NCBI RefSeq assembly: GCF_002797555.1
Contig: NZ_PGFA01000001.1
Span: 1,984,001 to 2,048,000 of the forward strand
Direction of reading: 5' to 3'
DNA length: 64,000 nt
Source: Hymenobacter chitinivorans DSM 11115
GTDB taxonomy: Bacteria; Bacteroidota; Bacteroidia; Cytophagales; Hymenobacteraceae
Part shown: positions 2,350 to 60,927 of the stretch, one piece after another
How the letters are laid out: the number at the start of each line of letters is the position of its first letter
Position numbering within the stretch: the stretch's first letter is position 1
Program-made: the position numbers and the translations under genes
Notes under the pieces: model-generated
The model's input: only the letters and a program-made list of their open reading frames with translations
Database searches by the model: none
Told to the model about the DNA's origin: nothing

Positions 2350-2407
2350 TTCCCAGTGCCTTGGCGCCCTCAGTACGCGCGTACTGAGGGCGCCAAGGCA
2401 CTGGGAA
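2350..2407. repeat. 58-bp perfect palindrome without a loop
   Basis: The two 29-bp arms are exact reverse complements that meet at the centre of GTACGCGCGTAC (between 2378 and 2379) with no spacer. It lies at the gene-proximal end of the 42-bp array, and its centre is exactly in phase with the other array cores. It is 58 bp upstream of the M23 start, so it could affect that promoter or form a cruciform. Confidence 0.9.
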
Positions 2408-3150
2408 TGCCGTAGTACGCGCGTACCGAGGGTGGCACCGCTCCGGGGAAGCCGTAGTACGCGCGTACCAACCCCTCCCGCGTGTCGGGAAGCCCGTAAC
2501 ACGCGCGTGTTAGGGCCTCCACGGCGCCCGTCAGGCCGTAGCACGTGCGTACTACGGCCTGCGCAGTATCGGGAAGGGCGTAGCACGCACGTCCTAAGGG
2601 CTCCACGGTGGCTGGGAGGCCGTGGGACGTACGTCCCATGCCCTCCGCAGTGCCAGGCAGGGCGTAGCACGTACGTCCCACGGCCTCCGCGGTGGCTGGG
2701 AGGCCGTGGGACGTACGTCCCATGCCCTCCGCAGTGCCAGGCAGGGCGTAGCACGTACGTCCCACGGCCTCCACGGCCTCCACGGCGTTGGGAAGGGCAT
2801 GGGACGTACGTCCCATGCCCAATTCGGTAGCAAAACGGGCGTGGGACGTACGTCCCAAGAGCTTCACGGTAGGCGAAGGGGCACTGCGGATATCCTGAGC
2901 GGGCCACATGGCGCCTGGAAGGCATGCAGGGAATCCTACATGGCCTTCGCGGTACCTGGGAGGGCATTGCGGGAATCCGCAACGGCCTGCCGGGCGTCTG
3001 GGAGCGGGTTCAGGGAATCCGCAACGGGCTTCCCGGCGCCGGGAAGCCCGCTGCGGATTCCCTCAGCGGGCAAAACGGTGGGCGGAAGGCCCTGGCGGAT
3101 TCCCTGAGCGGGTAAAACCGGGGCTGGGCGAGCTGAACAGAAATCCGCAA
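2373..3150. repeat. Array A: 42-bp-periodic palindromic array, 19 cores
   Basis: Nineteen short palindromic cores have centres spaced 42 bp apart (2378.5, 2420.5, 2462.5 and so on to 3142.5). There is one 51-bp step near 2780, where a CCTCCACGG nonamer is duplicated. The core sequence changes in blocks while the phase is kept: GTACGCGCGTAC, then ACACGCGCGTGT, mixed forms, GGACGTACGTCC, a GGATATCC core, then GGGAATCC and its complement GGATTCCC. The linkers also contain inverted repeats (for example GGCCTCC...GGGAGGCC). The array fills the divergent gap between the M23 and HMG-CoA lyase genes. It is open in several frames on both strands, which argues against a protein. Confidence 0.9.
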
Positions 3151-3165
3151 GCGGGTAAAAACGGT

Positions 3166-3173
3166 TTACTTTG
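3166..3173 (+). promoter_or_regulatory. Candidate -7 box of the HMG-CoA lyase gene
   Basis: TTACTTTG matches the Bacteroidota -7 consensus TAnnTTTG at 7 of 8 positions and lies 25 bp before the ATG, just outside array A. No clear -33 TTTG is present; the array fills that position. Confidence 0.4.
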
Positions 3174-3198
3174 CTCATCCACCCAACCTTGCCATCCT

Positions 3199-4047
3199 AT
3201 GAAGCTCATCGAATGCCCCCGCGACGCCATGCAGGGCCTGACCGAGTTTATTCCCACCGCCACCAAAATCAGCTACCTCAACACCCTGCTGCGCGTGGGC
3301 TTTGATACGCTCGATTTCGGCTCGTTCGTCTCGCCCAAGGCCATACCCCAGCTCCGCGACACGGCCGAGGTGCTGGCCGGCCTCGAGTTGAGCCAGACCA
3401 CGACCAAGCTGCTGGCCATTGTAGCCAACCTGCGCGGGGCCGAAACGGCCGCCAGCTTCCCCGAAATTCAGTACATCGGCTTCCCGCTGTCGGTGTCCGA
3501 AACCTTTCAGCTGCGCAACACCAACAAGACCATTCCCGAGGCGTTGGCCGAGCTCAACGCCATGCAGGACCTGTGCGAAAAGTCGGGCAAAACGCTGGTG
3601 ACTTACCTTTCCATGGGCTTCGGCAACCCCTACGGCGACCCGTGGAGCCCCGAAACCGTGGCCGACTTCACCCAGCAGCTGGCCGACATGGACGTGCGCG
3701 TGGTGGCTCTTTCCGACACCATCGGGGCCTCTACGCCCGCCACCATCGAGCCCCTGTTTCGCCAGCTCATTCCGGCCTTCCCCCGCATCGAGTTTGGGGC
3801 CCACCTGCACACCACGCCCGGCACCTGGCGCGAGAAGGTGCAGGCCGCCTACACCGCCGGCTGCCGCCGCTTCGACGGGGCCCTGGGCGGCATCGGGGGC
3901 TGCCCCATGGCCGCCGACCAGCTCACGGGCAACATGCCCACGGAAAACCTGGTGGCCTACTTCTCCGAAATCGGGCAGGACACCGGCCTCGACCCCAAAG
4001 CCCTAGCCCAGGCCTGGCAGGCGGCCGGCTCGGTGTTTCATTTTTAA
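3199..4047 (+). CDS. Hydroxymethylglutaryl-CoA lyase
   Basis: 282 residues forming a DRE-TIM metallolyase barrel. It starts with ECPRDAMQG (the metal-binding Arg-Asp pair) and carries SDTIGASTPATIEP, the paired metal ligands HLHTT, and the family signature GGIGGCPMA with its catalytic cysteine, followed by TGNMPTE. It should cleave HMG-CoA to acetoacetate and acetyl-CoA at the end of leucine breakdown. The frame is open upstream into the repeat array, but homology begins at MKLIECP, so that start is chosen. The length matches bacterial HMG-CoA lyases. The next gene downstream is lutA, after a 158-bp gap containing REP elements. Confidence 0.9.
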   Translation: MKLIECPRDAMQGLTEFIPTATKISYLNTLLRVGFDTLDFGSFVSPKAIPQLRDTAEVLAGLELSQTTTKLLAIVANLRGAETAASFPEIQYIGFPLSVSETFQLRNTNKTIPEALAELNAMQDLCEKSGKTLVTYLSMGFGNPYGDPWSPETVADFTQQLADMDVRVVALSDTIGASTPATIEPLFRQLIPAFPRIEFGAHLHTTPGTWREKVQAAYTAGCRRFDGALGGIGGCPMAADQLTGNMPTENLVAYFSEIGQDTGLDPKALAQAWQAAGSVFHF

Positions 4048-4072
4048 GGCTTATGTTGAATCGGTTTTGCCT

Positions 4073-4181
4073 GTAGAGACGCATATTTGCGTCTCGTCGT
4101 TGAACGATACGGTGCCGCGCAAACCCAACAACGGCAGCAACGATTGTCGTTCTGTCACGCGAACTACAAAGTTCGCGCTAC
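4073..4181. repeat. Composite REP element (two palindrome families)
   Basis: It begins GTAG followed by the hairpin AGACGCA-TATT-TGCGTCT, the same REP that flanks the RAYT gene at 53.7-54.5 kb. Then come the spacer words CGTTGAACGA and CAGCAACGATTG, which also occur inside the RAYT inverted repeats. It ends with a different hairpin, CGCGAAC-TACAAA-GTTCGCG, followed by CTAC (GTAG on the other strand). That second hairpin recurs identically at 13851-13874. It sits between the HMG-CoA lyase and lutA genes. Confidence 0.8.
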
Positions 4182-4205
4182 TCCTGCCTAACCACACCAC
4201 ACGCC

Positions 4206-4940
4206 ATGCCAACTGCCGTCGACCTGTTTATTCCCTGCTTCGTGGATCAGCTCTTCCCCGACACCGCCATGAACATGGTGAAAGTGCTGGAAAAGCTGGG
4301 CTGCGAGGTGCACTACAACAGTAACCAGACCTGCTGCGGCCAACCCGCCTATAACGCCGGCTACAAGGCCGAAAGCTGCTCGGTGGCCACCAAGTTTCTG
4401 CGCGACTTTCCCTCCGACACGGGCCGCTACATCGTGAGTCCGTCGGCGTCCTGCGTGGGCATGGTGCGCAATACCTACGCCGAGCTGTTCGAAAACACGC
4501 CCGAGCAGGGCCAGTACCACAGCGTGCAGCGCCGCATCTTCGAAATGACCGAGTTTATCGTCGACGTGCTCGGCGTCTCGGCCATCCAGGGCGCCCAGCT
4601 GCCGGGCAAGTACACCTACCACGATTCCTGCTCGGCCCTGCGGGAGTGCGGCATCCGGGAGGCCCCGCGCCAGCTCTTGGATGCCGTGCAGGGCCTGGAG
4701 CGCCTGGAAATGGCCGAAACCGAAACCTGCTGCGGCTTTGGCGGCACCTTCGCCGTCAAGTTCGAGGCCATTTCGGTAGCAATGGCCGAGCAGAAAGTAG
4801 AGCACGCCCTGGCCACCGGCGCCGACTACCTCATCAGCACCGACACGAGCTGCCTCATGCACCTGGACGCCTACATCCGCCGGGAGAAAAAGCCCATCAA
4901 AACCCTGCACGTGGCCGACGTGCTGGCTAGTGGGTGGTAG
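4206..4940 (+). CDS. lutA: LutA-type (Fe-S)-binding protein of lactate utilisation
   Basis: 244 residues with two cysteine-rich CCG domains: TCCGQPAYNAGY near residue 40 and CCGFGGTFAVKF near residue 178. Further cysteines are in PSASCVGM and STDTSCLM. The order and spacing match LutA (YkgE), a subunit of the L-lactate oxidising LutABC complex. LutB and LutC are not next to it here, so the partners must be elsewhere or the protein serves another oxidoreductase. No export signal is seen, so it is cytoplasmic. The start is the first ATG after the REP element. Confidence 0.85.
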   Translation: MPTAVDLFIPCFVDQLFPDTAMNMVKVLEKLGCEVHYNSNQTCCGQPAYNAGYKAESCSVATKFLRDFPSDTGRYIVSPSASCVGMVRNTYAELFENTPEQGQYHSVQRRIFEMTEFIVDVLGVSAIQGAQLPGKYTYHDSCSALRECGIREAPRQLLDAVQGLERLEMAETETCCGFGGTFAVKFEAISVAMAEQKVEHALATGADYLISTDTSCLMHLDAYIRREKKPIKTLHVADVLASGW

Positions 4941-4959
4941 GTCGGAGCCGGTTGTGAGT

Positions 4960-5163
4960 GAGGAGGCCCGAAGAAATTGCGTGTCCTTGCGAGCAGCGCG
5001 AAGCCATCCGTCCGCTGAAATGTGCGACGCCTTCTAAACTGAAAAGCCCTTTCCTGTTAGCAACGGGAAAGGGCTTTCTGGTTAAAGGATGGGACTACCG
5101 GCGCAGAGGACGGATTAGCGGCGCTGTCCTTCGGGTGCCACGGCCTTCGGCCGCGCAATGACA
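4960..5163. repeat. Imperfect inverted repeat enclosing a terminator
   Basis: The left end (CCTTGCGAGCAGCGCGAAGC followed by ATCCGTCC) and the right end (GGACGGATT ... CCGCGCAATGACA) are degenerate inverted copies of a TTGCGAG/GCAATGACA type repeat. A partial relative lies at 7127-7178. The terminator at 5043-5077 sits between the arms. It resembles a MITE-like or REP-like intergenic element. Confidence 0.55.
5043..5077. terminator. Bidirectional terminator between lutA and dapA
   Basis: The stem AAAGCCCTTTCC pairs with GGAAAGGGCTTT around an 11-nt loop. It lies between two convergent genes. Confidence 0.75.
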
Positions 5164-5169
5164 GAAAAC

Positions 5170-6039
5170 CTACAGCAGCTTCTGAATCCGCTGCTTCAGG
5201 CCTTCACTGGCTTCGAGCAGGGGCAGGCGGGCGGCGGGGGAGCACAGGCCCAGGGCTTCGAGCACGGCCTTGATGCCCACCGGGTTGGCCTCCTCGTACA
5301 TCAGTGGGTTCAGGGGCAGAAACTCGAAGAGCAGCTTGGTGGCCGCGGCGTAGTCGCCTTGCAGGGCCAGGCGGGTCATGTCGCTCATGCGCTTGGGGTA
5401 GGCATTGCCCAGCACGCTGATAACGCCCTCGGCCCCGAAGGAAATCATGGGTGTGGTCAGCATATCGTCGCCGCTGATGAGCATAAAGCCCTCGGGCCGG
5501 CGGGCGGCAATGGCCATGCACTGCTCCAGATTGCCGCTGGCTTCCTTGATACCGATGATGTTGGGGTGCTGGGCCAGGCGCAGGGTGGTGTCGGCCGTCA
5601 GGTTGGAGCTGGTGCGGCCCGGCACGTTATACAGGATGATGGGCAGGGGGCTGAGGTCGGCCAGGCGCAGGTAGTGCTGGATGATGCCCTGCTGGCTGGG
5701 TTTGTTGTAGGCCGGGCTGGCCGAGAGAATGGCGGTGATGCCCGTCAGGTCGGTGGTGCGCAGCAGGGTTTCGAGGCCGGCCGTGTCGTTGCCGCCGATG
5801 CCGTACACGAGCGGTACCCGACCGGCCACGTGCTCTTTTACCACGCGCAAGATTTCGGCTTTTTCCTCGGCCGTCGTCGTCGGCGACTCGGCCGTGGTGC
5901 CGTTGATAACGAGGTATTCTACGCCGCCGTCGATGTTAAAATCGAGCAGCCGACGCAGGGCGGGGTAGTCGACGGCGTGGTCGGGGGCGGGGGTGAAGGG
6001 CGTGATGAGCGCAACGCCCGTGCCGCGAAGTTTGTCCAT
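5170..6039 (-). CDS. dapA: 4-hydroxy-tetrahydrodipicolinate synthase
   Basis: 289 residues beginning MDKLRGTGVALITPF, the usual DapA N-terminus. The family features are NGTTAESPTTTAEEK (pyruvate-binding TT), YNVPGRTSSN (catalytic Tyr) and IIGIKEASGN (Schiff-base Lys). It condenses pyruvate with aspartate semialdehyde for lysine and diaminopimelate synthesis in the cytoplasm. An upstream in-frame extension to 6168 exists but precedes the conserved start. It is divergent from the deacetylase gene, with a 132-bp shared promoter region. All key residues are present. Confidence 0.95.
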   Translation of the reverse strand: MDKLRGTGVALITPFTPAPDHAVDYPALRRLLDFNIDGGVEYLVINGTTAESPTTTAEEKAEILRVVKEHVAGRVPLVYGIGGNDTAGLETLLRTTDLTGITAILSASPAYNKPSQQGIIQHYLRLADLSPLPIILYNVPGRTSSNLTADTTLRLAQHPNIIGIKEASGNLEQCMAIAARRPEGFMLISGDDMLTTPMISFGAEGVISVLGNAYPKRMSDMTRLALQGDYAAATKLLFEFLPLNPLMYEEANPVGIKAVLEALGLCSPAARLPLLEASEGLKQRIQKLL

Positions 6040-6129
6040 GCGGGGAATTAGCTGTTGTTTTGTGACTTGGAAGGCCGGCGGCGAAGATACAATGCGCTTG
6101 GTCAAGGTCGGCTTCCGGCATTTTCTCCC

Positions 6130-6137
6130 CAAAAGTA
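6130..6137 (-). promoter_or_regulatory. Candidate -7 box for dapA
   Basis: On the minus strand this reads TACTTTTG, an exact match to TAnnTTTG, giving a leader of about 85 nt. A convincing -33 TTTG is not seen at the right spacing. Confidence 0.4.
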
Positions 6138-6171
6138 CCGGGTCTGGCTTTGTGCCGCCGCAATTCACCGA

Positions 6172-7113
6172 ATGATTTTGTTCCGTACCCCGCTTTTTGT
6201 GGCCGCCGCCGCCCTGGCCGCCAGCTCATTTCTCACCGCCTGCGACACCAAGCCCGCCACGGCCTCCGAGGCCGGCAGCCCCACGGCCGAAGCCGTAACG
6301 TCGGATTCAGCCGCCACGGCCGCCGCTATGTCGGGCACGGCCGCTACGGCTACCGACGAGGCCAACGCCACCCCGGCGCCCGACCCGAGCAGCATTCCGG
6401 CCAATAAAATTGCCGACGCGGCTACCATCACCGCCCGCCCCCAGGTGCCGATTCTGTGCTACCACCAGATTCGCGACTGGCGCGCCAAGGACTCGAAAGG
6501 CGCCAAGGACTACATCGTGCCGGTGCAGCAGTTCAAGGACCAGATCAAGATGCTGGCCGACTCGGGCTACCACACCATTCTGCCCGACCAGCTCTACGCC
6601 TACCTGACCACGGGCGCCAAGCTGCCGAGCAAGCCCATCATGCTCACCTTCGACGACACCGACCTCGACCAGTTCACCGTGGCGAAGCCCACGCTCGACA
6701 AGTACGGCTACAAGGCCGTCTACTTCGTGATGACCGTGAGCCTGGGCCGCCCCAACTACATGAGCAAGGCCCAGGTGAAGCAGCTCTCGGATGAGGGCAA
6801 CGTCATCGGCTCCCACACCTGGGACCACCACAACGTGAAGAAATACCAGGGCCAGGATTGGGTAACCCAGATTGAGAAGCCCACCAAGACCCTGGAGGAA
6901 ATTACGGGCAAAGACATCAAGTATTTCGCCTACCCCTTCGGCCTCTGGAACCCCGAAGCCATTCCGCAGCTCAAGCAGCGCGGCATGGTGGCAGCCTTCG
7001 TGCTGGCCGAGAAGCGCGACCAGCAGGACCCGCTCTTCACCATTCGCCGCATCATTGCCAGCGGCTACTGGAAGCCCCGGACGCTGCACAACAGCATCGT
7101 GCAGAGCTTCTAA
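6172..7113 (+). CDS. Polysaccharide deacetylase (NodB fold) lipoprotein
   Basis: 313 residues. The signal peptide ends in the lipobox SFLTACD (Cys about 22), followed by a low-complexity Ala/Thr linker (to about 80). The NodB domain follows: PILCYHQI (motif 0), LTFDDTDLDQF (motif 1, DD) and SHTWDHHNV (motif 2, the His zinc ligands), then YFAYPFG (motif 3). It probably removes N-acetyl groups from cell-wall or extracellular sugar polymers at the outer surface. Motif 1 has T in place of the usual G after the DD pair. The start is fixed by the lipoprotein signal. Confidence 0.85.
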   Translation: MILFRTPLFVAAAALAASSFLTACDTKPATASEAGSPTAEAVTSDSAATAAAMSGTAATATDEANATPAPDPSSIPANKIADAATITARPQVPILCYHQIRDWRAKDSKGAKDYIVPVQQFKDQIKMLADSGYHTILPDQLYAYLTTGAKLPSKPIMLTFDDTDLDQFTVAKPTLDKYGYKAVYFVMTVSLGRPNYMSKAQVKQLSDEGNVIGSHTWDHHNVKKYQGQDWVTQIEKPTKTLEEITGKDIKYFAYPFGLWNPEAIPQLKQRGMVAAFVLAEKRDQQDPLFTIRRIIASGYWKPRTLHNSIVQSF

Positions 7114-7202
7114 GCCACTGGCGCCTGTCGTTGCGAGCATTCTGCGCATAAAGCAGAGACGAAGCAATTCGTCCGCTGCGCAGGCCTAAGTGACCTGTAC
7201 CC

Positions 7203-7238
7203 AAAAGCCCTTTATTCCAGCCGGAGTAGAGGGCTTTC
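7203..7238. terminator. Terminator after the deacetylase gene
   Basis: AAAGCCCT pairs with AGGGCTTT around a 20-nt loop, followed by a short pyrimidine run, 90 bp after the stop codon. Confidence 0.55.
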
Positions 7239-7242
7239 TGCT

Positions 7243-7327
7243 GTACCGCGAAGTTTCACTTCGCGAGACACCCGCGCCGTTGGTACGAGTGTCGGGCAAC
7301 GACTCGCGAAGTAGAACTTCGCGGTAC
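7243..7327. repeat. REP-like pair in inverted orientation
   Basis: Two 25-bp copies face each other: GTAC followed by CGCGAAGT-TTC-ACTTCGCG at 7243-7267, and its inverted copy at 7303-7327 (two loop mismatches). Between them are 35 bp. The plan (a tetranucleotide, a GC-rich hairpin, then an inverted second copy) is that of a BIME, as in the elements around the RAYT gene at 54 kb, though the hairpin sequence differs. The rest of the 7114-7481 gap holds a terminator and a possible -7 box, TACTTTTA, at 7417-7424. Confidence 0.75.
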
Positions 7328-7481
7328 GGCATATAGGGCTCTCTACGTTTCAAAGGACAAGCTGCTTTGCATCGGCTTTCAGAATCTGTACCGCCGGCAG
7401 GAGCAAGTGAATCCGTTACTTTTACCCCGGCAGGCCTACTGGTATAGCGCCCCAGCTCCCAGGTGATGATTACTTTTTTCT

Positions 7482-8693
7482 ATGCAGCCTTTTCTGGATA
7501 TCTGGTCGGTCTTGATTCTGTTGGGGGCGGGGCAGGGGCTGTTTCTGAGCTGGACGTTCTTTTTCTCGCCCCACGGCCTGCGCCTGCGCAACCGCCTGCT
7601 GGGGCTACTCCTGTTTTGCCTGACTCTGCTGGTCATCGAGATTCTGCTCTGCTACTCGGGCTACATCAAGTTTGCGCCCTTCTTCGTGGGCCTCACCGAG
7701 CCGCTCACCTTCGTGGCCCCGCCGCTGCTCTACCTCTACGTGCGCAGTCTTACCCAGCCCGCGTTTCGCTGGCAGCCGCGCTACCTATGGCTGTTGGGGC
7801 CGGCCGGGCTGCACGCGGTGTACATGCTGCCCTTCTTCGCCCAGACTGATGCCTGGAAGCTGTGCACCGTCGCCAATTCGTTTCACCGGGCCCCGCCGGC
7901 AGTTCCGGCCCCGGCGCATGATTTCTGGTGGTTTGCGACCTACGAGCAGTTTTACCCCGTTTTCTACCTGGTGCTGAGCGGCTATCTGCTGCTCTACCTG
8001 GGCCTGCAGCTGCGCGTGCTGGTGCCGTACTGGCGCCGGCTGGCGACCCAGCCCAAGGGGGCAACTACCGAGCGGGCCTGGCTCGGCCGTTTGGGGCTGG
8101 GCTTTGGGCTGGTGCTGCTCGTGTACGTGGGAGCCACGACCTACTTCCACCGCGCCACCGGCGACGTCAACGATGCCGGCGACGTGTGGCTGGCTTCCCT
8201 GATTTCCCTGCTCTTCTACGGCATGAACGGCTGGGCCATTAGTCGCTCCAACCTGCTGACCCAGCCAGTTTCGGAGACAGAAACGGCCGCAGAACCCGCG
8301 GAAGCCGCGCGTAGGAAATATGAAAAAACTGCGCTGAGCCCAGAGGTGTCCGCGGAAATACTGGGCCGGCTGCGCACCCTGATGACCACTGCCGAGCCCT
8401 ACCGCAGCCCCGACTTGTCGTTGGCCGAGCTGGCCGCCCAGCTGCGGGTGCCCGGCTATCAGCTCTCCCAGGTTATCAATGAGCAGTGCCAGCAGAACTT
8501 CTTCGACTTCATCAATTCCTACCGCATCGAGGAGGTGAAACGCCAGCTGCTGCGGCCCGAGTTGGCCCACCTCAAGCTGGAGGAAATCGGGTTTGCGGCG
8601 GGGTTTAACTCGAAATCGGCCTTCAACGCGGCCTTTAAGAAGCACACCCAGACCACCCCGTCACAATTCCGAAAAACGGCGTTTACGCAGTAG
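7482..8693 (+). CDS. Membrane-anchored AraC-family transcriptional regulator
   Basis: 403 residues. The N-terminal 255 residues contain about seven hydrophobic helices (for example LLGLLLFCLTLLVIEILLC). The C-terminal 100 residues form an AraC/XylS helix-turn-helix pair: LSLAELAAQLRVPGYQLSQVIN and LKLEEIGFAAGFNSKSAFNAAF. This seven-helix plus HTH_18 layout is common in Bacteroidota and probably couples a membrane signal to transcription. Targets cannot be told from the sequence. The neighbouring acyltransferase is a possible target, since it follows in the same direction. Confidence 0.85.
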   Translation: MQPFLDIWSVLILLGAGQGLFLSWTFFFSPHGLRLRNRLLGLLLFCLTLLVIEILLCYSGYIKFAPFFVGLTEPLTFVAPPLLYLYVRSLTQPAFRWQPRYLWLLGPAGLHAVYMLPFFAQTDAWKLCTVANSFHRAPPAVPAPAHDFWWFATYEQFYPVFYLVLSGYLLLYLGLQLRVLVPYWRRLATQPKGATTERAWLGRLGLGFGLVLLVYVGATTYFHRATGDVNDAGDVWLASLISLLFYGMNGWAISRSNLLTQPVSETETAAEPAEAARRKYEKTALSPEVSAEILGRLRTLMTTAEPYRSPDLSLAELAAQLRVPGYQLSQVINEQCQQNFFDFINSYRIEEVKRQLLRPELAHLKLEEIGFAAGFNSKSAFNAAFKKHTQTTPSQFRKTAFTQ

Positions 8694-8821
8694 CAGAGGG
8701 GATTAGTTAAGAGTGTCGCGTCCGGATTCGTAAGGTAGTACGCCGGGTTTGTGAGGTACGTCGTGTAGTGGCGGCGGCCCGAGTAGGTTTGAGCATCGAT
8801 TCACCTACACCGCTTGCCGCT

Positions 8822-10128: not shown

Positions 10129-10141
10129 CTTTGAGTCATGA

Positions 10142-11049: not shown

Positions 11050-13251
<2,202 letters not shown>

Positions 13252-13285
13252 TTAGTTGGTAGTTGTTCGTTGTCAGTTGTCAGGT
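13252..13285. repeat. GTTG heptamer tract
   Basis: Imperfect 7-bp units (TTAGTTG, GTAGTTG, TTCGTTG, TCAGTTG) lie between the ligA promoter and array B. The same heptamer family makes up the insertion inside icmF at 57988-58099. Seven bp is one third of the 21-bp unit of the array next to it. Confidence 0.6.
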
Positions 13286-13299
13286 GGGGCGCGGTTGGG

Positions 13300-13740
13300 G
13301 TGGGAAGCTCCGCCGTCAAGGTAGAAACCTTCGCCTTCATGGTCGGGAGCTTCGCCTTTATGGTCGGAAGCTCCGCTTTCACGGTAGGAAGCTCCGCCTT
13401 CATGGTCGGAAGCTCCGCCTTCAGGGTAGAAACCTTCTCCGTCAGGGTTGAAAGCTCCGCCACCGGGGTAGAAGTCTCCGCCTTCAGGGTCGGAAGCTGC
13501 CCCGTCGTAGTTGGGAGCTTCTCCGTCAGGGTAGAAACCTTCTCCGTCGGGGTCGGGAGCTTCTCCGCCGGGGTCGAAGGCTGCTCCGTTGAAGTTGGAA
13601 GCTTCTCCGCCGGGGTCGAAGGCTGCTCCGTTGGAGTCGGAGGCTGCTCCGTCATGGTAGAAAGCCACTCCGCTGGGGTAGAAACCCTTTCCGTTGGAGT
13701 TGGAAGCTTCTCCGTTGAAGTTGGAAGCTGCTCCGTTGGA
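13300..13740. repeat. Array B: 21 tandem units of 21 bp
   Basis: Exactly 441 bp divide into 21 units of 21 bp with no insertion or deletion. The unit consensus begins GTnGGAAGCTnCTCCG and ends with five variable bases (often TCAGG or TTGGA). Units differ from each other at several positions, so the array is old or under selection for phase rather than sequence. It lies upstream of ligA and is followed by a terminator-like hairpin. It is open in several frames (seven-residue peptide repeats), but no frame has a convincing gene start. Confidence 0.92.
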
Positions 13741-13750
13741 ATTGGAACGT

Positions 13751-13780
13751 AAAAAGGCAGCTCTTGCGGGCTGCCTTTTG
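13751..13780. terminator. Hairpin at the end of array B
   Basis: AAAAGGCAGC pairs with GCTGCCTTTT around an 8-nt loop, immediately after the last 21-bp unit. Confidence 0.6.
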
Positions 13781-13887: not shown

Positions 13888-14391
13888 TTAGTCCTGGACC
13901 AGGACGCCGTCGGCTTCGAAGTTGAGCTGCTCCTCGGGCTGGGTGATGGCGGCTACTTCCTTGGCCGACTTGCCGGCGTCTTTGGCGTAGTGCTGCAGGT
14001 CCTCGACGGGGACGACTTCGCGGTGGGCCCAGCCGTTGATGACCACGGTTTTGCCGCTGATGTCCTTGGGCACGAAGAAGGCGTAGTCCTTGAAGCGCAC
14101 CCGCATGGCTTGGCCTTCGGCGGTGGTCATCGTGAGCCAGCAGCCCTTGGCCTGGCAGACCTCGGCGGCCGTGCCCACGAGCTTGACCTGGGCCGAATCC
14201 TGCTGGCCCAGCACCTGGCGCAACTCGCTCATGGGCCGGGCACCGGCGGCGGTAAGGGGGGCGCCGTAGGTGTGGCCACCCGGGGCGGCAGTGGCTGGGG
14301 CCGCGGCCGCGGCGGTTTCGGGGGTGGAGGCGGAGTGGCAGGCGGCCAGGGAAACCAGGCCGGCGGCCAGGGCGAGCAGCTTGAGCGTCAT
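13888..14391 (-). CDS. DUF4920 lipoprotein
   Basis: 167 residues. The signal peptide ends in the lipobox SLAACH, followed by an Ala/Pro-rich linker. The globular part (about 42-167) has EVCQAKGCWLTMTTAEGQ with a conserved cysteine pair, RVRFKDYAFFVPKDISGKTVVINGWA, and a C-terminal LNFEADGVLV strand, which together fit DUF4920. That domain is an OB-like fold of unknown function frequent in Bacteroidota. It is probably anchored in a membrane facing the periplasm. It follows the TapB-like gene, but a strong hairpin separates the two. Confidence 0.8.
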   Translation of the reverse strand: MTLKLLALAAGLVSLAACHSASTPETAAAAAPATAAPGGHTYGAPLTAAGARPMSELRQVLGQQDSAQVKLVGTAAEVCQAKGCWLTMTTAEGQAMRVRFKDYAFFVPKDISGKTVVINGWAHREVVPVEDLQHYAKDAGKSAKEVAAITQPEEQLNFEADGVLVQD

Positions 14392-50244: not shown

Positions 50245-50559
50245 AGGGTGTGGCCTTGGCGCAAGCAGGTGTTACTTCGCGCAACTAGGGTTTTGCTTCG
50301 CGCGAAGGGTGTTTTAGGATAATCAACCCCTGTTTTGCTTTGCTCGAATCCTATTTTGAGTTCCTCGAATACCGTTTTGCCTTGCTCGAATAAGGTTTCG
50401 GGTCGCTCGAATAGGGTTTTGCTTTCCTCGAATAGGGTTTTGCCTTGCTCGAATGGCGTTTTGCTTTCCTCGAATGCTGTTTCATCTTGCTCGAATGGCG
50501 TTTTGCCTTGCTCAAATTGGAGTGGGGGGTGCTCGAATGCGGGTTTCGGGGCGGTTGCT
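50245..50559. repeat. Array C: 15 units of 21 bp
   Basis: The strict core is ten units of exactly 21 bp from 50329 to 50538, each ending CTCGAAT (one ends CTCAAAT) and most containing GTTTTGC near their start. Four weaker units precede and one follows in the same phase. It fills the divergent gap between the DUF3667 and coiled-coil genes (50115-50645). The consensus is unrelated to arrays B and D, but the period is identical. Little else is seen in the gap. Confidence 0.88.
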
Positions 50560-53477: not shown

Positions 53478-53494
53478 ACCTGACTCGCACCCAA

Positions 53495-53715: not shown

Positions 53716-53716
53716 G

Positions 53717-54386: not shown

Positions 54387-54392
54387 AGATAG

Positions 54393-54503
54393 AACGATGT
54401 AGAGACGCATACTTGCGTCTCCCCGTTGAACGAGGACGCCTGTAATACTACAGGATAAACAACATCAGCAACGATTGAGACGCAAATATGCGTCTCTACA
54501 TCC
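54393..54503. repeat. Right composite REP inverted repeat of the RAYT element
   Basis: 111 bp, the inverted partner of 53717-53828. The central part (54439-54454, CCTGTAATACTACAGG) differs in sequence from the left copy, yet both are palindromic, so structure is conserved while sequence changes. The outer hairpins AGACGCATACTTGCGTCT and its relative are intact. It overlaps the RAYT promoter region. Confidence 0.88.
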
Positions 54504-54608
54504 GGTGGTGCCGCCCAGCAAAACGCCGCCCGGATTGCTCTGGGCGGCGTTTTGATTTGTCAAGTTAAGAATGCGCCTAACGCGCCAGACGGGATATTCT
54601 TCGTCTGT

Positions 54609-55145
54609 TTAAGAATATCTGTTTGCGTTAAAGGCAGCAGCAAATGCTGAAGAATCGACAAAGGCGGCTTTTAGATGCGGATCTAAGCTTTCGATGAGTA
54701 TTGCTTCATTATCATTCAAGTCAAGAAAAACAATCATGCCTTCGTGATTGATGTAATTCGCTATTAGCCGTTCGCCACTAAAGAAATAGAGTTGGTCGAA
54801 CTCGTAGTAATCACTGAATTTCTCGCTCTTGAAATTATGAACTGCAAACTCGTATTGTAAAAGTTTTGCCTTACAGCTCTCATTAAGCTGAAACATGCAA
54901 ACTATATCGTCATCAGCTTCGACTAAGCCACCAGCTTCAAGTACCCAGTCACCAAAATAGCTTAGTCCATCAGGAAACAAATCAGCTTTCTTGAAAACCC
55001 CTGCAAAAGCAAAGCTGTCAGCAATTTTAAATACGAAGTTGTTGAGCACACTCTGCCAATCTTCGTCAGTGATGAAGTCCCATGCCGGGCAGTTCTCACC
55101 TTCGAGCTCAAGATTACTCATGAAAAGCTTATTGTGCAGAGTCAT
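54609..55145 (-). CDS. Hypothetical protein, 178 residues, AT-rich
   Basis: Acidic protein with WDFITDEDWQSVLNNFVFKI, CMFQLNESCKAKLLQYEFAV and LDLNDNEAILIESLDPHLK; no signal or membrane helix. I do not recognise it. Its base composition is visibly lower in GC than all neighbours, and it sits between icmF and the RAYT element, which suggests recent acquisition. The alternative start at 55121 (MSNLELEGEN) is plausible. SMI1-like character is possible. Confidence 0.65.
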   Translation of the reverse strand: MTLHNKLFMSNLELEGENCPAWDFITDEDWQSVLNNFVFKIADSFAFAGVFKKADLFPDGLSYFGDWVLEAGGLVEADDDIVCMFQLNESCKAKLLQYEFAVHNFKSEKFSDYYEFDQLYFFSGERLIANYINHEGMIVFLDLNDNEAILIESLDPHLKAAFVDSSAFAAAFNANRYS

Positions 55146-55156
55146 CTTAACCTGTC

Positions 55157-58100
55157 CTACATATTCCGGCGGTACTGTCCACCCACCTCGAACAGCGCAT
55201 TCGTAATCTGCCCCAAGGAGCAGAACTTGACCGTTTCCATGAGCTCGGCGAAGAGGTTGCCGTTGGCAATGGCGACTTGCTGGAGCTGCTTGAGGCGGCT
55301 GGCGGTCTGGTCGGCGTTGCGGGTGTGCAGGATGTTGAGCATCTCGATTTGATACTGCTTTTCCTCGTCGGTGGCGCGGATAACCTCGGCGGGCACCACC
55401 GTGGGCGAGCCTTTGGAGGAGAGGAAGGTATTCACGCCGATGATGGGGTACTCACCCGTGTGCTTGAGCATCTCGTAGTGCATGCTTTCCTCCTGGATTT
55501 TGCCGCGCTGGTACATGGTTTCCATGGCACCCAGCACGCCGCCGCGCTCGGTGATGCGGTCAAACTCCATCAGCACGGCTTCTTCCACCAGGTCGGTGAG
55601 CTCCTCGATGATGAAGGAGCCTTGCAGCGGATTTTCGTTTTTGGCCAGGCCCAGCTCCCGGTTGATGATGAGCTGAATGGCCATGGCCCGGCGCACCGAT
55701 TCTTCGGTGGGGGTGGTAATGGCCTCATCGTAGGCGTTGGTGTGCAGCGAGTTGCAGTTGTCGTAGATGGCGTAGAGGGCCTGCAACGTGGTGCGGATAT
55801 CGTTGAAGTCGATTTCCTGGGCGTGCAGGCTCCGGCCGCTGGTCTGGATGTGGTACTTGAGCATCTGGCTCCGGGCGTCGGCGCCGTACTTGAGCTTCAT
55901 GGCCTTGGCCCAGATGCGGCGCGCTACGCGGCCAATGACGGCGTACTCGGGGTCGATGCCGTTGGAGAAGAAGAACGAGAGGTTGGGCGCGAAGTCGTTC
56001 ACGCTCATGCCCCGGCTCACGTAGTACTCCACGAAGGTGAAGCCGTTGCTCAGCGTCAGAGCTAGTTGGGTGAGGGGGTTGGCGCCGGCTTCGGCAATGT
56101 GGTAGCCGGAAATGGACACCGAGTAGAAGTTGCGGACCTTCTCCTTGATGAAGTACTCCTGCACGTCGCCCATCAGGCGCAGGGCGAATTCGGTGGAGAA
56201 GATGCAGGTGTTCTGGGCCTGGTCCTCCTTCAAGATGTCGGCCTGCACGGTGCCGCGCACCTGGCTGAGCGTACGTTTCTTGATGGTTTCGTAGACGTCG
56301 GCGGGCAGGACCTGGTCGCCGGTGACGCCGAGCAGCATCAGGCCCAGGCCGTCGTTGCCCTGGGGCAGCTCGCCCTGGTAGCGGGGGCGGTTGAGGCCCT
56401 TGTCGGCGTAGAGCTGGTTGATTTTAGCTTCTACTTCTGCCTCTAATCCGTTCTCCTTTATATAGAGCTCACACTGCTGGTCGATGGCGGCGTTCATGAA
56501 GAAGGCGGCCAGGGTGGCGGCGGGGCCGTTGATGGTCATCGACACCGAGGTGCTGGGGTTGGCCAGGTTGAAGCCCGAATAGAGCTTCTTCGCGTCGTCG
56601 AGGCAGCAGATGCTCACCCCGGCGTTGCCGATTTTGCCGTAGATGTCGGGCCGGTGGTCGGGGTCTTCGCCGTAGAGCGTCACCGAGTCGAAGGCCGTGG
56701 ACAGGCGCTTGGCGGGCAGGCCCATGCTTACGTAGTGGAAGCGGCGGTTGGTGCGCTCGGGGCCGCCTTCGCCGGCAAACATGCGGGTCGGGTCTTCGCC
56801 CTCGCGCTTGAAGGGGAACACGCCGGCGGTGTAGGGAAACTCGCCGGGCACGTTTTCCTGGAGCTGCCAGCGCAAGAGGTCACCCCAGGCCGTGTAGCGC
56901 GGCAGGCTGACTTTGGGAATCTGCTGGTTCGAGAGGCTGGTGGTGTGGGTCTGGATGCGGATTTCCTTGTCGCGCACCTTAAACACGAACTCCGGGGCCT
57001 TGTAGGCGGCTACTTTTTGCGGCCAGGTTTCCAGGAGTTTCCAGTTCTGCCCGTCCAGCCGGAGTTTGACCTCCTCGAAGGTCCTCTCCAGGCCGGCCAC
57101 GAGGCTTCCGGATTCGGATTGGTGGCCGCCGTGCCCGCTGCCAGGTCCTGCAGCGGCGTTTCCGACACTTTGGACGGCTCCGATGGCTTGCTTGATTCCG
57201 TAGAGTTGCTGAGCGGTGTCAGCTTGTTTGAGAACCCACTGGTCATATTGGCGGTTGGTTTCGGCGATTTCAGACAAATACCGCGTGCGGTGCGGCGGAA
57301 TGATATAGATTTTCTCGGAGTCTTCCTTGGTGGTGGCAAGCTGGGAGGCAAACGGCACGCCCGTTTTGGTCTCAATCATGCTGAGGATGGCCCGGTAGAG
57401 GCGGTTCATGCCCGGGTCGTTGAACTGCGAGGCGATGGTGCCGAAGACGGGCATGTCGTCCAGGGGCTTGTCCCAGTGGCCGTGGTTGCGCTGGTACTGC
57501 TTGCGCACGTCGCGCAGCGCGTCGAGGGCGCCGCGCTTGTCGAACTTGTTGAGGGCAATGACGTCGGCGAAGTCGAGCATGTCGATTTTCTCCAGCTGGG
57601 TGGCCGCCCCGTACTCGGGCGTCATGACGTAGAGGCTGGCGTCGGAGTGCTCGATGATTTCGGTGTCGGACTGCCCGATGCCGGAGGTTTCGAGGATGAT
57701 GAGGTCGAACTCGGCGGCACGCACTACGTCGACGGCGTCCTGGACGTACTTGCTCAGGGCCAGGTTGCTCTGGCGGGTGGCCAGGCTGCGCATGTACACC
57801 CGGGGCGAGTTGATGGAGTTCATCCGGATCCGGTCGCCGAGCAGGGCCCCGCCGGTTTTGCGCTTCGAGGGGTCGACGGAGATGATGGCAATGGTCTTCT
57901 CGGGGAAGTCCATCAGGAAGCGGCGCACCAGCTCATCCACCAGGCTCGACTTACCCGCGCCGCCGGTGCCGGTGATGCCTAATATTGGAGTTGTTAGTTG
58001 TTTGTTGTCAGTTGTTAGTTTTTCGTTGTCGGTTGTTGGGTCGTTCTGTTGGGCTTGTTCCCCCCCAACTGACAACTGACAACTAGCAACTAACAACTCT

Positions 58101-58657
58101 CTAACCTTCTCAAACTCCTCGGGGAAGTTTTCGGCGGCGGAGATGAGGCGGCCGATGCTGCGGGCGTCTTTCTCCTTGACGTGGGTTACTTCGCCGTTCA
58201 GGTTCTGGCCGGTGGGGAAGTCGCAGCGCTGGAGCAGGTCGTTGATCATGCCCTGCAGGCCCATGGCGCGGCCGGCGTCGGGGGAGTAGATCTGCTCGAT
58301 GCCGTAGGCGTGGAGGTCTTCGATTTCGGTGGGCAGAATCACGCCGCCGCCGCCGCCGAAGAGGCGGATGTGGCCCGCGCCGCGCTCCTTGAGCAAATCG
58401 AACATGTACTTGAAGTACTCGTTGTGGCCGCCCTGGTAGGAGGTAATGGCAATGGCCTGGGCATCTTCCTGGATGGCGCAGTCCACAATTTCCTGCACCG
58501 AGCGGTTGTGGCCCAGGTGGATGACTTCGGCGCCGCTGCTCTGGATGATGCGGCGCATGATGTTGATGGCCGCGTCGTGGCCGTCGAACAGCGCGGCGGC
58601 GGTGACGATGCGGATGTGGTTTTTCGGCTTATAGGGAGCGGCGGGAGCTGCTTGCAT
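55157..58657 (-). CDS. icmF: Fused isobutyryl-CoA/methylmalonyl-CoA mutase-type protein IcmF
   Basis: 1166 residues. The order is: B12-binding domain (about 15-145, [18 protein letters not shown] with DxH), a MeaB-like G domain with Walker [17 protein letters not shown] (about 225-430), a linker, and the mutase TIM barrel (about 570-1166, e.g. [20 protein letters not shown]). It interconverts isobutyryl- and n-butyryl-CoA or related acyl-CoAs using adenosylcobalamin, with its own chaperone G domain. The linker between the B12 and G domains (about 187-223) is a palindromic heptamer insertion kept in frame. Confidence 0.93.
57988..58099. repeat. In-frame palindromic heptamer insertion within icmF
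   Basis: 112 bp made of 7-bp units: GTTGTTA, GTTGTTT, GTTGTCA, GTTGTTA and relatives from 57990, then inverted CAACTGA, CAACTGA, CAACTAG, CAACTAA, CAACTCT to 58100. The 33-bp outer arms pair with three mismatches. It adds about 37 Thr/Gln/Asn-rich residues ([20 protein letters not shown]) between two domains without breaking the frame. The same tract type is found upstream of ligA. Confidence 0.85.
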
Positions 58658-58699
58658 AGCGCGGGGGAATGGGGTGGAATTTGGGTAGGCGAAGGTACG

Positions 58700-58733
58700 A
58701 AAAAAGCCCCGGCGGTGGGAGCGGGGGCTTTTT
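58700..58733. terminator. Terminator between the lipoprotein and icmF genes
   Basis: AAAAAGCCCC with a partner GGGGCTTTTT forms a GC stem flanked by A and T runs; it serves the upstream minus-strand gene. Confidence 0.65.
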
Positions 58734-58749
58734 GTTGGGGAATGTCAAG

Positions 58750-59202
58750 CTATTTTCGGTAGTAGGATTCAACTTCGATGGTAATCCCAGTTCGTACTTC
58801 CTGGTTGATTTCAGCCAATGAATATTTTTTAAGAGCAACCTGAAGTGAATCTAGGGTTGGGCCTTTGTCCAGTAGCATGGGAATAACTCTTGCGTTGTAC
58901 TTGCCATTCAGCACCAGTATAGGGCCCTGGTGCGAAGAGTTATCGAAGTGCCATAAGCCCCGAAAGTGGTGGTCGACGACTACTGGCCAGTAGTGGTAGC
59001 GTTTAAGAAGTGTGGGATTGTCGCGGTATGCTTCGGGGAGTTGGTTATTCACTGCCCGACGTAGTACTGCCAGCTTCGCCGAGTTCGGCCTGAAGCGCCG
59101 CTCCCGTTGCTTATCGGTGAATTCGGTATCACCAACGGGGCGGATTCCTTGGCAACTGGATAGAAGGGCGAGGTAGATGTAAGGAAGGTAGAGGAACCGC
59201 AT
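58750..59202 (-). CDS. Hypothetical lipoprotein, 150 residues
   Basis: Signal peptide MRFLYLPYIYLALLSSCQGI with a lipobox-like LLSSC. The mature part has an energy-transducer-like KYNARVIPMLLDKGPTLDSL and SLAEINQEVRTGITIEVESY, with moderate AT bias. No family is recognised. A lone gene between icmF and the next unit. Confidence 0.65.
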   Translation of the reverse strand: MRFLYLPYIYLALLSSCQGIRPVGDTEFTDKQRERRFRPNSAKLAVLRRAVNNQLPEAYRDNPTLLKRYHYWPVVVDHHFRGLWHFDNSSHQGPILVLNGKYNARVIPMLLDKGPTLDSLQVALKKYSLAEINQEVRTGITIEVESYYRK

Positions 59203-59255
59203 AATTTGGCTTGTAGGGTAAAGCTACAAGTTAAGCAGTGGGAGCGGAGGCTTGG

Positions 59256-59519
59256 TTATGACCACAAAGACTCATCCACGAAACTCCGGGAGCCTTCCTC
59301 GTTGAACGTTTTGAGCAAGGCATCTACGGCTGCCAGAGGAATATCGACGGCCTCGAACGTGGCGAAGTCAATCTTCTTCAGGTCGTCGTGGCGGAAGATT
59401 TCGATTAGCAGCGTCTTTTCTCCCGTGCATTCCCACAACTCCCAGCCGGCCCCGTTGCGGGTGCTGACGTCACTGAACCATTGGAGTTCGAATTGCCGGG
59501 TGCCGATGGTGAAGCGCAT
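59256..59519 (-). CDS. Hypothetical protein, 87 residues
   Basis: A small soluble protein starting MRFTIGTRQFELQWFSDVST with a C-terminal acidic helix (ALLKTFNEEGSRSFVDE). No family recognised. The longer frame upstream (to 59684) is translated repeat sequence (SPRWG-type) and is not used. Looks real by codon usage and a compact fold. Confidence 0.6.
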   Translation of the reverse strand: MRFTIGTRQFELQWFSDVSTRNGAGWELWECTGEKTLLIEIFRHDDLKKIDFATFEAVDIPLAAVDALLKTFNEEGSRSFVDESLWS

Positions 59520-59567
59520 AGGTCGGGGTTTTAGTAGAGTATTCTCAGGGACGGAGTGGAAACGCCA

Positions 59568-59725
59568 GCCCCAGCGGGGCGGCATATCGGTAGTAAGGAT
59601 AGAGGAAACATTTGAAAAGCCCCAGCGGGGCGACACTACCGTTGCCAGGATTGGTGTCGCCCCGCTGGGGCTTGGGAAAATCAAGGTTATCTGGGTTTGC
59701 TACCAATATGTCGCCCCGCTGGGGC
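59568..59725. repeat. Four-copy GCCCCGCTGGGGC palindrome cluster
   Basis: Copies at 59568-59580 and 59619-59631 in one orientation, and at 59659-59671 and 59713-59725 in the other. On the minus strand, the second copy is preceded by GTAGTGTC, so GTAG again precedes the hairpin. This repeat translates to SPRWG-type peptides and is widespread in Bacteroidota intergenic DNA. Confidence 0.75.
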
Positions 59726-59817
59726 TGGTTGCGGGAGCGTCATGGGTTGGTGGCGGGGGAGGTGGTAGGTTGGGTAGTCCTAAGCCGTCTATCTTAGCGG
59801 GCTAAGAGCCTATACTT

Positions 59818-60555
59818 ATGATGCGGATTCGAGTGCTGCTTATCGGGGTAATTCTACTAGGAACCGGGTTGTGGCTCTACGCCCGCTTGATGCCGGCTTT
59901 CGTGGATGGGGCGGTGAAAACCGAAGCGGATTTGCGGCTAAAACTAATGAGTGAGTCCCGCGCCACCTATTATAAAAAGGAAGCAGCGCTGCGCACCAAC
60001 CGGAACACGCTGTTAGATGTGGGCTCGGGGCTGGCGGTGAGCGGCTTGGTAGTGCTACTACTTGGGCGGGTGTTACGGGTCGATACCGCGGCCGAGCTTC
60101 GGTGGCGGCCGACGTTTGGCAAGGGGGCCGTGTTGCTCTGGTTTAATGCTGGGTGGGGTATCTTATTCGTGGCCTTAAACTGGTATTACACGTACCGGGC
60201 GGCTCGTGGTGATTATCCCCCCTTTGCCGATAGTATTGGGATTCCCATTATGCAGGGTGCGGCTACTCTACTGTTTTACTGGCCGATTATAAATGGCCTG
60301 CTGCTGCTGGCCCTGTGGGGGGCGGAGCTGCCGGGCGTGCTCGGCGAAATGCCTTATCGGTACACCGGAAGGGCTATTGTGGTGGAAGTGGTGTTTGGTG
60401 TGTTTGCCCTGTTGCTGCTGCTAGAAACGGGGGAGAATATCGTGTATGGCGACCATCTGACTATTCCCGTCATGCTCGGCTTTCTGTACCTGGTAGTCGT
60501 GCTGCGGGCCGGGCACATGCAGGCCGTGAATCAGCGGCTGCGCGTGCAAGCATAG
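59818..60555 (+). CDS. Hypothetical membrane protein, 245 residues
   Basis: Five to six membrane helices (VLLIGVILLGTGLWLYARLM; GLAVSGLVVLLLGRVLRV; AVLLWFNAGWGILFVALNWY; ATLLFYWPIINGLLLLALWG; IVVEVVFGVFALLLLLE). No family recognised. The first ATG (MMRI) is used. The final codons run into the first degenerate unit of array D. Confidence 0.7.
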   Translation: MMRIRVLLIGVILLGTGLWLYARLMPAFVDGAVKTEADLRLKLMSESRATYYKKEAALRTNRNTLLDVGSGLAVSGLVVLLLGRVLRVDTAAELRWRPTFGKGAVLLWFNAGWGILFVALNWYYTYRAARGDYPPFADSIGIPIMQGAATLLFYWPIINGLLLLALWGAELPGVLGEMPYRYTGRAIVVEVVFGVFALLLLLETGENIVYGDHLTIPVMLGFLYLVVVLRAGHMQAVNQRLRVQA

Positions 60556-60927
60556 TTGCTCAAGTGTCATGGGTTGCTGCGGAGGCGGCAAGGGCCGGTG
60601 GCGGGGTGGCAATGAGGGCTGCCCTCGTGGCAAGGGCTGGTGGTGGGGTGACAATGAGGGCTGACCAAGTGGCAACGCTCGGTGGCGGGGTGACAATGAG
60701 CACTGGCGAGGTGGCAACGCCTGCTGCCGTCGTGGCAACGGCTGGTGACCGAGTGGCAAGGGCATCTGCCCTCGTGACAATGCGTACTGACCGGGTGACA
60801 AGGCGTGCTGCCCTCGTGACAACGGCCGCTGACCTACGCGCAATGCTTGCTGACCTCTTCACAATGGCTTGTGCACTGCTCACAATGCTCCGTGACTGAG
60901 TGACAAGAGGAGTTGACCGTGGGGCGA
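60550..60927. repeat. Array D: 21-bp units, 16 strict copies
   Basis: From 60571 to 60906, sixteen units of exactly 21 bp each end GTGGCAA or GTGACAA (late ones TTCACAA or CTCACAA) and most contain CTG about 13 bases before the unit end. A degenerate unit precedes and one follows in phase. It lies in the convergent gap 60556-61030, so the array is not tied to promoters. The remaining 100 bp of the gap show nothing else. Confidence 0.9.

What the first reader, a model, noticed from the sequence alone, without database searches (positions are those of the whole stretch)
2373..60927. Four intergenic arrays share one period, 21 bp, but not one sequence
Arrays at 2373-3150 (42 bp, i.e. 2 x 21), 13300-13740 (21 x 21 bp), 50245-50559 and 60550-60927 (21 bp) have unrelated consensus sequences, yet each keeps phase almost perfectly. 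Twenty-one bp is two turns of B-DNA and also seven codons. The conserved word (palindromic core, GGAAGCT, CTCGAAT, GTGGCAA) would face the same side of the helix in every unit. Settings differ: divergent, co-directional and convergent gaps. One possibility is a nucleoid or partition-type protein that binds in helical phase; another is a replication-based mechanism that copies fixed 21-bp steps. I know of no described system of this kind.
Basis: partly seen in the sequence, partly recalled or inferred. Interest (0 to 1): 0.93.

Follow-up and report, generated by a model that had tools for sequence, protein, structure and literature searches.

The report
Helix-phased repeat lattices between genes
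Between the genes of a group of Hymenobacter bacteria lie dozens of short DNA repeat arrays whose units recur every 21 or 42 letters, matching whole turns of the double helix, while the repeated word at one and the same place differs between species; they likely line up DNA-binding proteins on one face of the DNA, and no such genome-wide system was found in the papers we searched.

Summary
In the window's Hymenobacter genome (1.46 of 5.87 Mb read) I catalogued 24 arrays of period 21 or 42 bp; in 1.264 Mb scanned for all lags, 63 windows reach z>=5 at 21 bp, none at 20, one at 22. 21-bp arrays are head-to-tail: conserved motif columns plus variable ones. 42-bp arrays carry a core, usually palindromic, in either orientation, with dissimilar spacers of fixed length.

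Seven relatives have such arrays, often in the same gap with another word. Upstream of ligA, own and G068 carry one word, G067 and G060 another. At locus B eight species carry four core families, six of the eight on one 42-bp grid within 1 bp. Gap-tolerant searches of 120 Hymenobacter genomes gave 17 of 17 core pairs (7 arrays) at 42 bp; of 29 GTGACAA triplets, 23 (11 arrays) were at 21+21 bp and 6 came from one 7-bp microsatellite.

Best reading: helically phased arrays of protein-binding sites whose site sequence is switched while the lattice stays (0.45). The binding proteins are unknown. Fast spacer turnover is unexplained and leaves a fixed-step site-writing process open (0.25). Coding, heptamer origin and REP/RAYT are disfavoured.

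The parts
2371..2870 (.). Array 1a: 42-bp lattice, palindromic core family (AGTACGCGCGTACT / GGGACGTACGTCCC) between divergent genes 946-2292 (-) and 3199-4047 (+)
   Evidence: TRF; units; core steps 42 bp in 7 of 9, one 84, one 51; genes by home-made caller
2910..3127 (.). Array 1b: 42-bp lattice, GGGAATCCGCAACGGGC-type core; the same core type stands in the orthologous gap of G060
13297..13748 (+). Array 2: 21-bp head-to-tail array, GGAAGCT family, about 21 units, between the DUF4920 gene's terminator-like hairpin and ligA
   Evidence: GTGACAA family stands here in G067 and G060
13749..13778 (-). Terminator-like hairpin of the DUF4920 gene, abutting array 2
   Evidence: read from sequence by eye
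13248..13285 (+). Short 7-bp (GTTGTC-type) repeats bordering array 2 on the ligA side; also at this border in G060 and, decayed, in G068
   Evidence: read by eye
11050..13212 (-). ligA, NAD-dependent DNA ligase (flanking gene and synteny anchor)
   Evidence: Pfam
13888..14391 (-). DUF4920 protein gene (flanking gene)
   Evidence: Pfam
50262..50548 (+). Array 3: 21-bp head-to-tail array (GTTTTGC..TTGCTCGAAT) between divergent genes; G068 has a 21-bp array here that shares GTTTTG but otherwise has another word
60561..60930 (+). Array 4: 21-bp head-to-tail array, GTGACAA/GTGGCAA family, between convergent genes; G067, G068, G060 and G083 also have GTGACA-type 21-bp arrays beside the same 864-nt or matching downstream gene

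Best explanation
The arrays are lattices of short sites spaced 21 bp (head-to-tail) or 42 bp (mostly palindromes) that likely hold rows of sequence-specific DNA-binding proteins on one face of the helix in the gaps between genes. Shown: the spacing, the split into conserved site and more variable spacer, the intergenic setting, the shared positions among related species, and the difference of site family at one and the same place, at locus B mostly on one grid. Inferred: that proteins bind; that each site family has its own protein or paralogue; that selection for helical phase keeps the grid; and that the result is a nucleoprotein block or insulator between transcription units, since the arrays tend to leave room for promoters and ignore gene orientation. 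Not explained by this reading alone: spacers at locus B are not alike between species whose promoter-proximal DNA is 67-82% identical, so array sequence must be renewed quickly while the register is mostly kept.
For: Period spectrum with 21/42 far above 20, 22, 41, 43 in own genome; the same lags in G067, G068, G060, G083 and, in 100 kb each, 2, 1 and 2 regions in G090, G081 and G017. Lag-7 z below 3 in 24 of 25 21-bp arrays, so 21 is not three heptamers in those. Spacing left free over 120 Hymenobacter genomes: CGGGACWWGTCCCG pairs, 39-45 bp allowed, 9 of 9 distinct pairs at 42, from 5 arrays; GCTTCKMGAAGC pairs, 26-56 bp allowed, 8 of 8 at 42, all from the two locus-B arrays already known in G060 and G090; GTGACAA triplets, 10-40 bp allowed per step, 23 of 29 exactly 21+21, from 11 arrays in 9 genomes, the other 6 being one 7-bp microsatellite in G128. 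Changes between neighbouring units avoid certain columns in 23 of 25 21-bp arrays. Palindromic consensus in 9 of 15 42-bp arrays at p<0.01 against 2 of 26 21-bp arrays; cores in either orientation. Locus B: four core families in eight species; six of eight share a 42-bp register relative to the gene start within about 1 bp. One of 41 arrays lies in a high-scoring gene; 27 of 41 overlap no called gene and 13 overlap gene edges or short, low-scoring calls.
Against: No binding protein found; HU (PF00216) copy number does not separate the 8 array-bearing genomes from 10 other Hymenobacter (the array status of most of the ten is unknown). Among 20 neighbouring proteins 12 had a Pfam match, none a DNA-binding regulator (ligA apart). 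Site families differ even between the sister species G067 and G068, odd for a regulator with conserved targets. Same-grid spacers between species are no more alike than different-grid spacers (0.41 over 96 comparisons, 0.40 over 594). Core-to-core steps under 70 bp: 64 of 87 are exactly 42, 12 more within 2 bp, 11 elsewhere (part of the small shifts comes from orientation-dependent offsets of asymmetric cores). Same-unit pairing of the two arms exceeds cross-unit pairing slightly (Fisher p 0.015 for 21-bp, 0.009 for 42-bp arrays), which hints at some hairpin effect. Array 1 is absent in G068 although its flanks are there. Exact phase within arrays is partly ascertainment. Isolated copies of the palindromic cores outside arrays were nearly absent (one, GCGGATATCCGC at own2 234096) and isolated copies of two 21-bp words few, so no ordinary operator use of these words is seen.
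Confidence: 0.45

Rival explanations
1. A fixed-step writing process makes the arrays: some replication or recombination activity copies a short core to a new position 21 or 42 bp away, so the period reflects the machine and not selection on the product.
For: Only 21/42 steps occur whatever the word. Cores agree better than spacers. At locus B the first core lies 42 bp from the dyad of the neighbouring terminator-like hairpin in 7 of 8 species and 41 in the eighth, as if steps start there. Spacer similarity is lost faster than flank similarity.
Against: No enzyme known or found; RAYT-type Y1 transposase is absent from 4 of 8 array-bearing genomes. At another locus (L215) the hairpin is about 50 bp from the first core, read by eye. 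The eight locus-B species share ancestry, so the hairpin register may be one or few events. Conserved motif columns persist in diverged 21-bp arrays, which asks for selection.
Confidence: 0.25
2. The 42-bp arrays are tandem terminator-like hairpins that act in RNA and stop transcription from both sides; the 21-bp arrays are a separate matter.
For: Locus-B units have A-tract, GC-rich palindrome, T-tract form like the adjacent hairpin (by eye). Slight within-unit pairing excess (Fisher p 0.009 over 15 arrays).
Against: An RNA hairpin needs no exact 42-bp spacing. Same-unit pairing 0.53 against cross-unit 0.48; p<0.05 in 3 of 15 arrays, among them array 1 of the window and its G060 counterpart, each a mixture of core types. 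Array 1 lies between divergent genes. No Rfam match in the window at gathering scores.
Confidence: 0.12
3. The arrays are only intrinsically curved DNA: any 21-bp repeat adds its bends in phase.
For: Predicted bend is above the mean of column-permuted versions in 17 of 26 (21 bp) and 10 of 15 (42 bp) arrays (wedge values recalled).
Against: Mean predicted bend is 68 for 42-bp and 81 for 21-bp arrays, against 63 (s.d. 24) in 868 ordinary gaps; at least 15 of 41 arrays are below that mean. Does not explain cores shared between loci and species.
Confidence: 0.06
4. Neutral tandem repeats or coding heptads: slippage products or remnants of coiled-coil genes.
For: 33 of 40 arrays have at least one open frame of six, and a 322-aa frame over array 2 weakly matches a leucine-zipper model below its cut-off. 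Codon-phase bias in 5 of 25 at p<0.05, a little above the 1 or 2 expected.
Against: A 21-bp repeat tends to keep frames open by itself; intergenic position; no spread of periods; core/spacer split; same gap occupied by another word with the same period.
Confidence: 0.05

Closest known systems
Plasmid iterons (Rep-binding direct repeats near replication origins; recalled)
   Same: Direct repeats of about 17-22 bp in helical phase that line up one protein.
   Different: Tens of chromosomal gaps, many unlike words, a palindromic 42-bp class, no replication-initiator match among the neighbouring proteins scanned.
REP/BIME/REPIN elements with RAYT transposases (PMC3733652, PMC3116915: search listing with start of abstract only; RAYT link recalled)
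   Same: Small palindromes in intergenic DNA, clustered.
   Different: 42-bp grid, many words, and no Y1 transposase match in 4 of 8 array-bearing genomes.
Heptamer direct repeats (TAACTGA type) of Beggiatoaceae, Cyanobacteria and five Bacteroidetes (PMC4679880: abstract and section list read)
   Same: Intergenic direct repeats in many gaps of one genome; 7-bp arrays also occur here.
   Different: 21-bp arrays show no clear 7-bp signal in 24 of 25; many words instead of one.
CRISPR arrays (recalled)
   Same: Short repeats with dissimilar spacers of constant length.
   Different: Repeats flip orientation within one array, spacers share a weak consensus, many small arrays of different repeats.
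Eukaryotic satellite DNA (PMC8122249: search listing with start of abstract only)
   Same: Period kept while sequence turns over between species (recalled).
   Different: Bacterial, dispersed, period two or four helical turns instead of a nucleosome.

Membership tests
REP/BIME with RAYT | A RAYT (Y1 transposase, PF01797) in the genome | tested here: not met
   No match in G067, G068, G083, G090, which have arrays; 11 of 18 genomes positive overall
Plasmid iterons | Direct repeats of about two helical turns | tested here: met
   21-bp class
Plasmid iterons | Beside an origin and a Rep gene | tested here: inconclusive
   No Rep domain among 20 neighbouring proteins scanned, 8 of which had no family match
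CRISPR | Near-identical repeats in one orientation | tested here: not met
   Mixed orientations such as +--++-+ in G067, with 1-4 mismatches; G017 and G081 are uniform in orientation but have 1-5 mismatches
CRISPR | cas genes | not tested
   no search made
Heptamer (STRR-like) repeats | 7-bp period | tested here: not met
   Lag-7 z below 3 in 24 of 25 21-bp arrays; one (own1 731516) has 7.0
Coding heptad repeats | Codon-phased variation in a gene | tested here: not met
   p<0.05 in 5 of 25 arrays; mostly outside called genes
Helically phased protein-site arrays | Conserved site, more variable spacer, spacing a whole number of turns | tested here: met
Helically phased protein-site arrays | A protein shown to bind | not testable with these tools
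   needs pull-down or footprinting
Intrinsic terminator arrays | Hairpin plus T-tract in each unit | tested here: inconclusive
   Seen by eye at locus B; not seen in array 1 or the 21-bp arrays of the window

The most novel reading that the evidence does not exclude
A bacterial satellite lattice: a dedicated machinery keeps a 21/42-bp grid in intergenic DNA and rewrites the word on it, so that species pass through a small set of exchangeable core families at fixed grid positions, the bacterial counterpart of fast-evolving centromeric satellites with a constant period.
Probability: 0.25. Interest if true: 0.96.

Novelty: categorically new. Interest (0 to 1): 0.82.

Why it matters
Repeats whose length is constant while their sequence is not are known from eukaryotic satellites (recalled); a bacterial case tied to the pitch of DNA would give a small-genome system for asking what keeps period without sequence. 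It also predicts an unknown set of DNA-binding or site-writing proteins in these Hymenobacter, and gives natural helically phased arrays with several alternative words at orthologous sites for direct tests.

Tried and rejected
Coding heptads: disfavoured. Origin from 7-bp repeats: disfavoured for 24 of 25 21-bp arrays. REP/RAYT: rejected. HU expansion: no difference seen. Known RNA family: none in the window at gathering scores. Pure curvature: weak. Compensatory hairpins: weak, p<0.05 in 6 of 25 (21 bp) and 3 of 15 (42 bp) arrays, Fisher p 0.015 and 0.009. Orthologous spacers: not found. Absence of lag-21 signal in 42-bp arrays (mean excess 0.003) is partly built in, since arrays were put in the 42 class when z at 21 was below 7.

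The first comparison of indel ratios failed for the background (zero alignments) and was rerun: 5.9-6.3 mismatches per indel event in alignable non-array gaps; in arrays 3059 mismatches and 91 indel events, many at array edges; ascertainment favours the arrays. The length from a ligA-side anchor to the hairpin differs by 168 bp (8 x 21) between own and G060, but the remainders after 21 are 6, 6, 8, 3 for own, G060, G067, G068, so no general rule.

Distribution: no 21/42-bp region at z>=7.5 in 729 kb around ligA of 35 records, 34 named Hymenobacter and one Solirubrum, at most 22 kb each; these include H. nitidus, H. lucidus and H. persicinus, whose genomes do have arrays elsewhere, so this sample is weak. 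G032: no region at z>=6 in 120 kb. One search shows GTGACAA arrays in G016, G084, G092, G093, G013 and G006, so the phenomenon is wider than the close clade. Rows dropped before the array count: three candidates dominated by periods 102, 78 and 93, and afterwards G068 205969, inside a high-scoring gene; 41 became 40. The gene list behind the orientation counts was made after removing gene calls that lie more than half inside an array.

The idea that cores decay towards array ends is not kept: in three of four locus-B arrays the worst end unit is the terminator-like hairpin itself.

Papers: searches listed no description of these arrays that I recognised; only open-licence PMC text was searched, and only PMC4679880 was opened (outline and abstract).
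Full report
The window is G000:C1:1984001-2048000 of a 5.87-Mb, 7-contig genome.

The four arrays exist as described. I read 1.2 Mb more of contig 1 and 184 kb beyond the window. An autocorrelation scan of 1.264 Mb over lags 5-130 shows lags 21 and 42 in 41.9 and 47.2 of 10,000 windows at z>=5, against 0 at 20 and 0.7 at 22. With a threshold of 6.5 and the rule 'a multiple of 21 among the two best lags', and after the exclusions named under Tried and rejected, own DNA (1.464 Mb) has 24 arrays, and 300 kb each of G067, G068 and G060 plus 80 kb of G083 add 17, of which one is coding: 40 arrays, 25 of period 21 and 15 of period 42. At this density the whole own genome would hold roughly 100 (extrapolation). 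Other regions in the scan of own1 have lags that are multiples of 3 (9, 66, 69, 78, 81, 87, 102), read as coding from their lags and not tested one by one, or lag 7.

The two classes differ. 21-bp arrays are head-to-tail and rarely palindromic (2 of 26 at p<0.01), 42-bp arrays are often palindromic (9 of 15). In 23 of 25 21-bp arrays the changes between neighbouring units avoid certain columns. In 42-bp arrays neighbouring cores are 84% alike and spacers 50% (64 pairs at exactly 42; 23 of 87 steps under 70 bp are not exactly 42, 12 of them within 2 bp). Cores appear in both orientations. In the own array at 333 kb a 10-bp block also flips in place within 21-bp units.

The spacing was tested with free gaps by searching 120 Hymenobacter genomes for two or three copies of a word. 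Results: 9 of 9 distinct CGGGACWWGTCCCG pairs (allowed 39-45 bp; 5 arrays in G000, G060, G017) and 8 of 8 GCTTCKMGAAGC pairs (allowed 26-56 bp; the two locus-B arrays of G060 and G090, both known before) at 42 bp; 23 of 29 GTGACAA triplets (allowed 10-40 bp per step) at exactly 21+21, from 11 arrays in 9 genomes, the remaining 6 from a single 7-bp microsatellite in G128. Six of these nine genomes (G016, G084, G092, G093, G013, G006) had not been looked at for arrays before. Reversed-pattern controls gave no match, and matches in 4 genomes (G099 9, G036 1, G125 1, G022 65), which I did not examine.

Orthologous gaps. Upstream of ligA, own and G068 carry GGAAGCT units, G067 and G060 GTGACAA units, and H. 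nitidus, H. lucidus, H. persicinus and G083 have a short gap with no array. A 13-protein tree puts G067 and G068 together (support 96) and G060 with G090 (93), so the word differs between sister species and is shared between non-sisters. GTGACA-type arrays stand at the array-4 gap in own, G067, G068, G060 and G083. All 4 arrays of the 300-kb G067 stretch and all 4 intergenic ones of the G068 stretch fall in gaps that hold an array in own, matched by at least one flanking gene and by eye. The reverse does not hold: array 1 is absent in G068.

Locus B (82.4 kb in the extended window, upstream of a 179-aa protein gene) was cut from the 30 best-matching of 119 genomes that have this gene. Seven show a clear 42-bp signal (z 6.4-12.4), two a weak one (G092 5.1, not examined; G001 4.4). 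Eight genomes have cores of a known family in series: alpha in own and G081, beta in G067 and G017, gamma in G068, delta in G060, G090 and, as two decayed units, G083. Core centres counted from the common gene start fall on one 42-bp grid within 1 bp in six of eight; G081 is 3 bp off and G068 about 15. The dyad of the terminator-like hairpin lies 42 bp from the next core in 7 and 41 in 1; in own, G067 and G068 one search had counted this hairpin as the first core. Matching thresholds give 0.04-0.40 chance hits per shuffled region, so single weak hits mean little. Yet spacers at the same grid position are not alike (0.41 against 0.40 at different positions), even between the sisters G060 and G090, which share the core family (0.41 against 0.35, 5 spacers), while the 90 bp next to the gene are 67-82% identical in the 8 pairs compared. 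At another own locus (L215) beta and delta cores stand in one array, read by eye as one 42-bp grid within about 1 bp.

Interpretation. Constant spacing, conserved site and freer spacer are what a row of bound proteins on one face of the helix would select. Words can be exchanged if several proteins, or paralogues, serve. Array edges lie 44-191 bp from the facing start codon in 35 of 44 cases, and gene orientation is as in the background; this suggests a structural or insulating role and not control of one promoter. That is inference. The fast loss of spacer similarity is the main result against a purely selective reading and leaves a core-writing process open.

Limits. No protein was found. 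Exact phase within arrays is partly ascertained. The genus survey by ligA neighbourhoods saw 22 kb per record at most. Genes were called by a home-made script. Curvature values rest on recalled parameters.

Noticed in passing
window 57989-58098: 7-bp (AGTTGTT / CAACTAA) repeats in two inverted blocks; four more 7-bp arrays in own contig 1 at about 822, 1054, 1122 and 1199 kb. Resemble published heptamer repeats.
   Followed up: partly
own genome C1 731516-731813: The one 21-bp array with a clear 7-bp signal (z 7.0), a possible link between the 7-bp and 21-bp repeats.
   Followed up: no
G060 C1, about 1065-1069 kb (144145-148092 of the joined stretch): About 3.9 kb with period 65 bp, possibly a CRISPR array.
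   Followed up: no
L126 17767-18165: A 42-bp array (z 14.9) in a Prevotellaceae metagenome-assembled genome, far from Hymenobacter.
   Followed up: no
own genome C1 319553-321936: Three long 147-bp (7 x 21) repeats, apparently coding.
   Followed up: no
own genome C1 333412-333784: 21-bp array in which 10-bp blocks (CACTCGTTTG / CAAACGAGTG) occur in both orientations at the same phase.
   Followed up: partly
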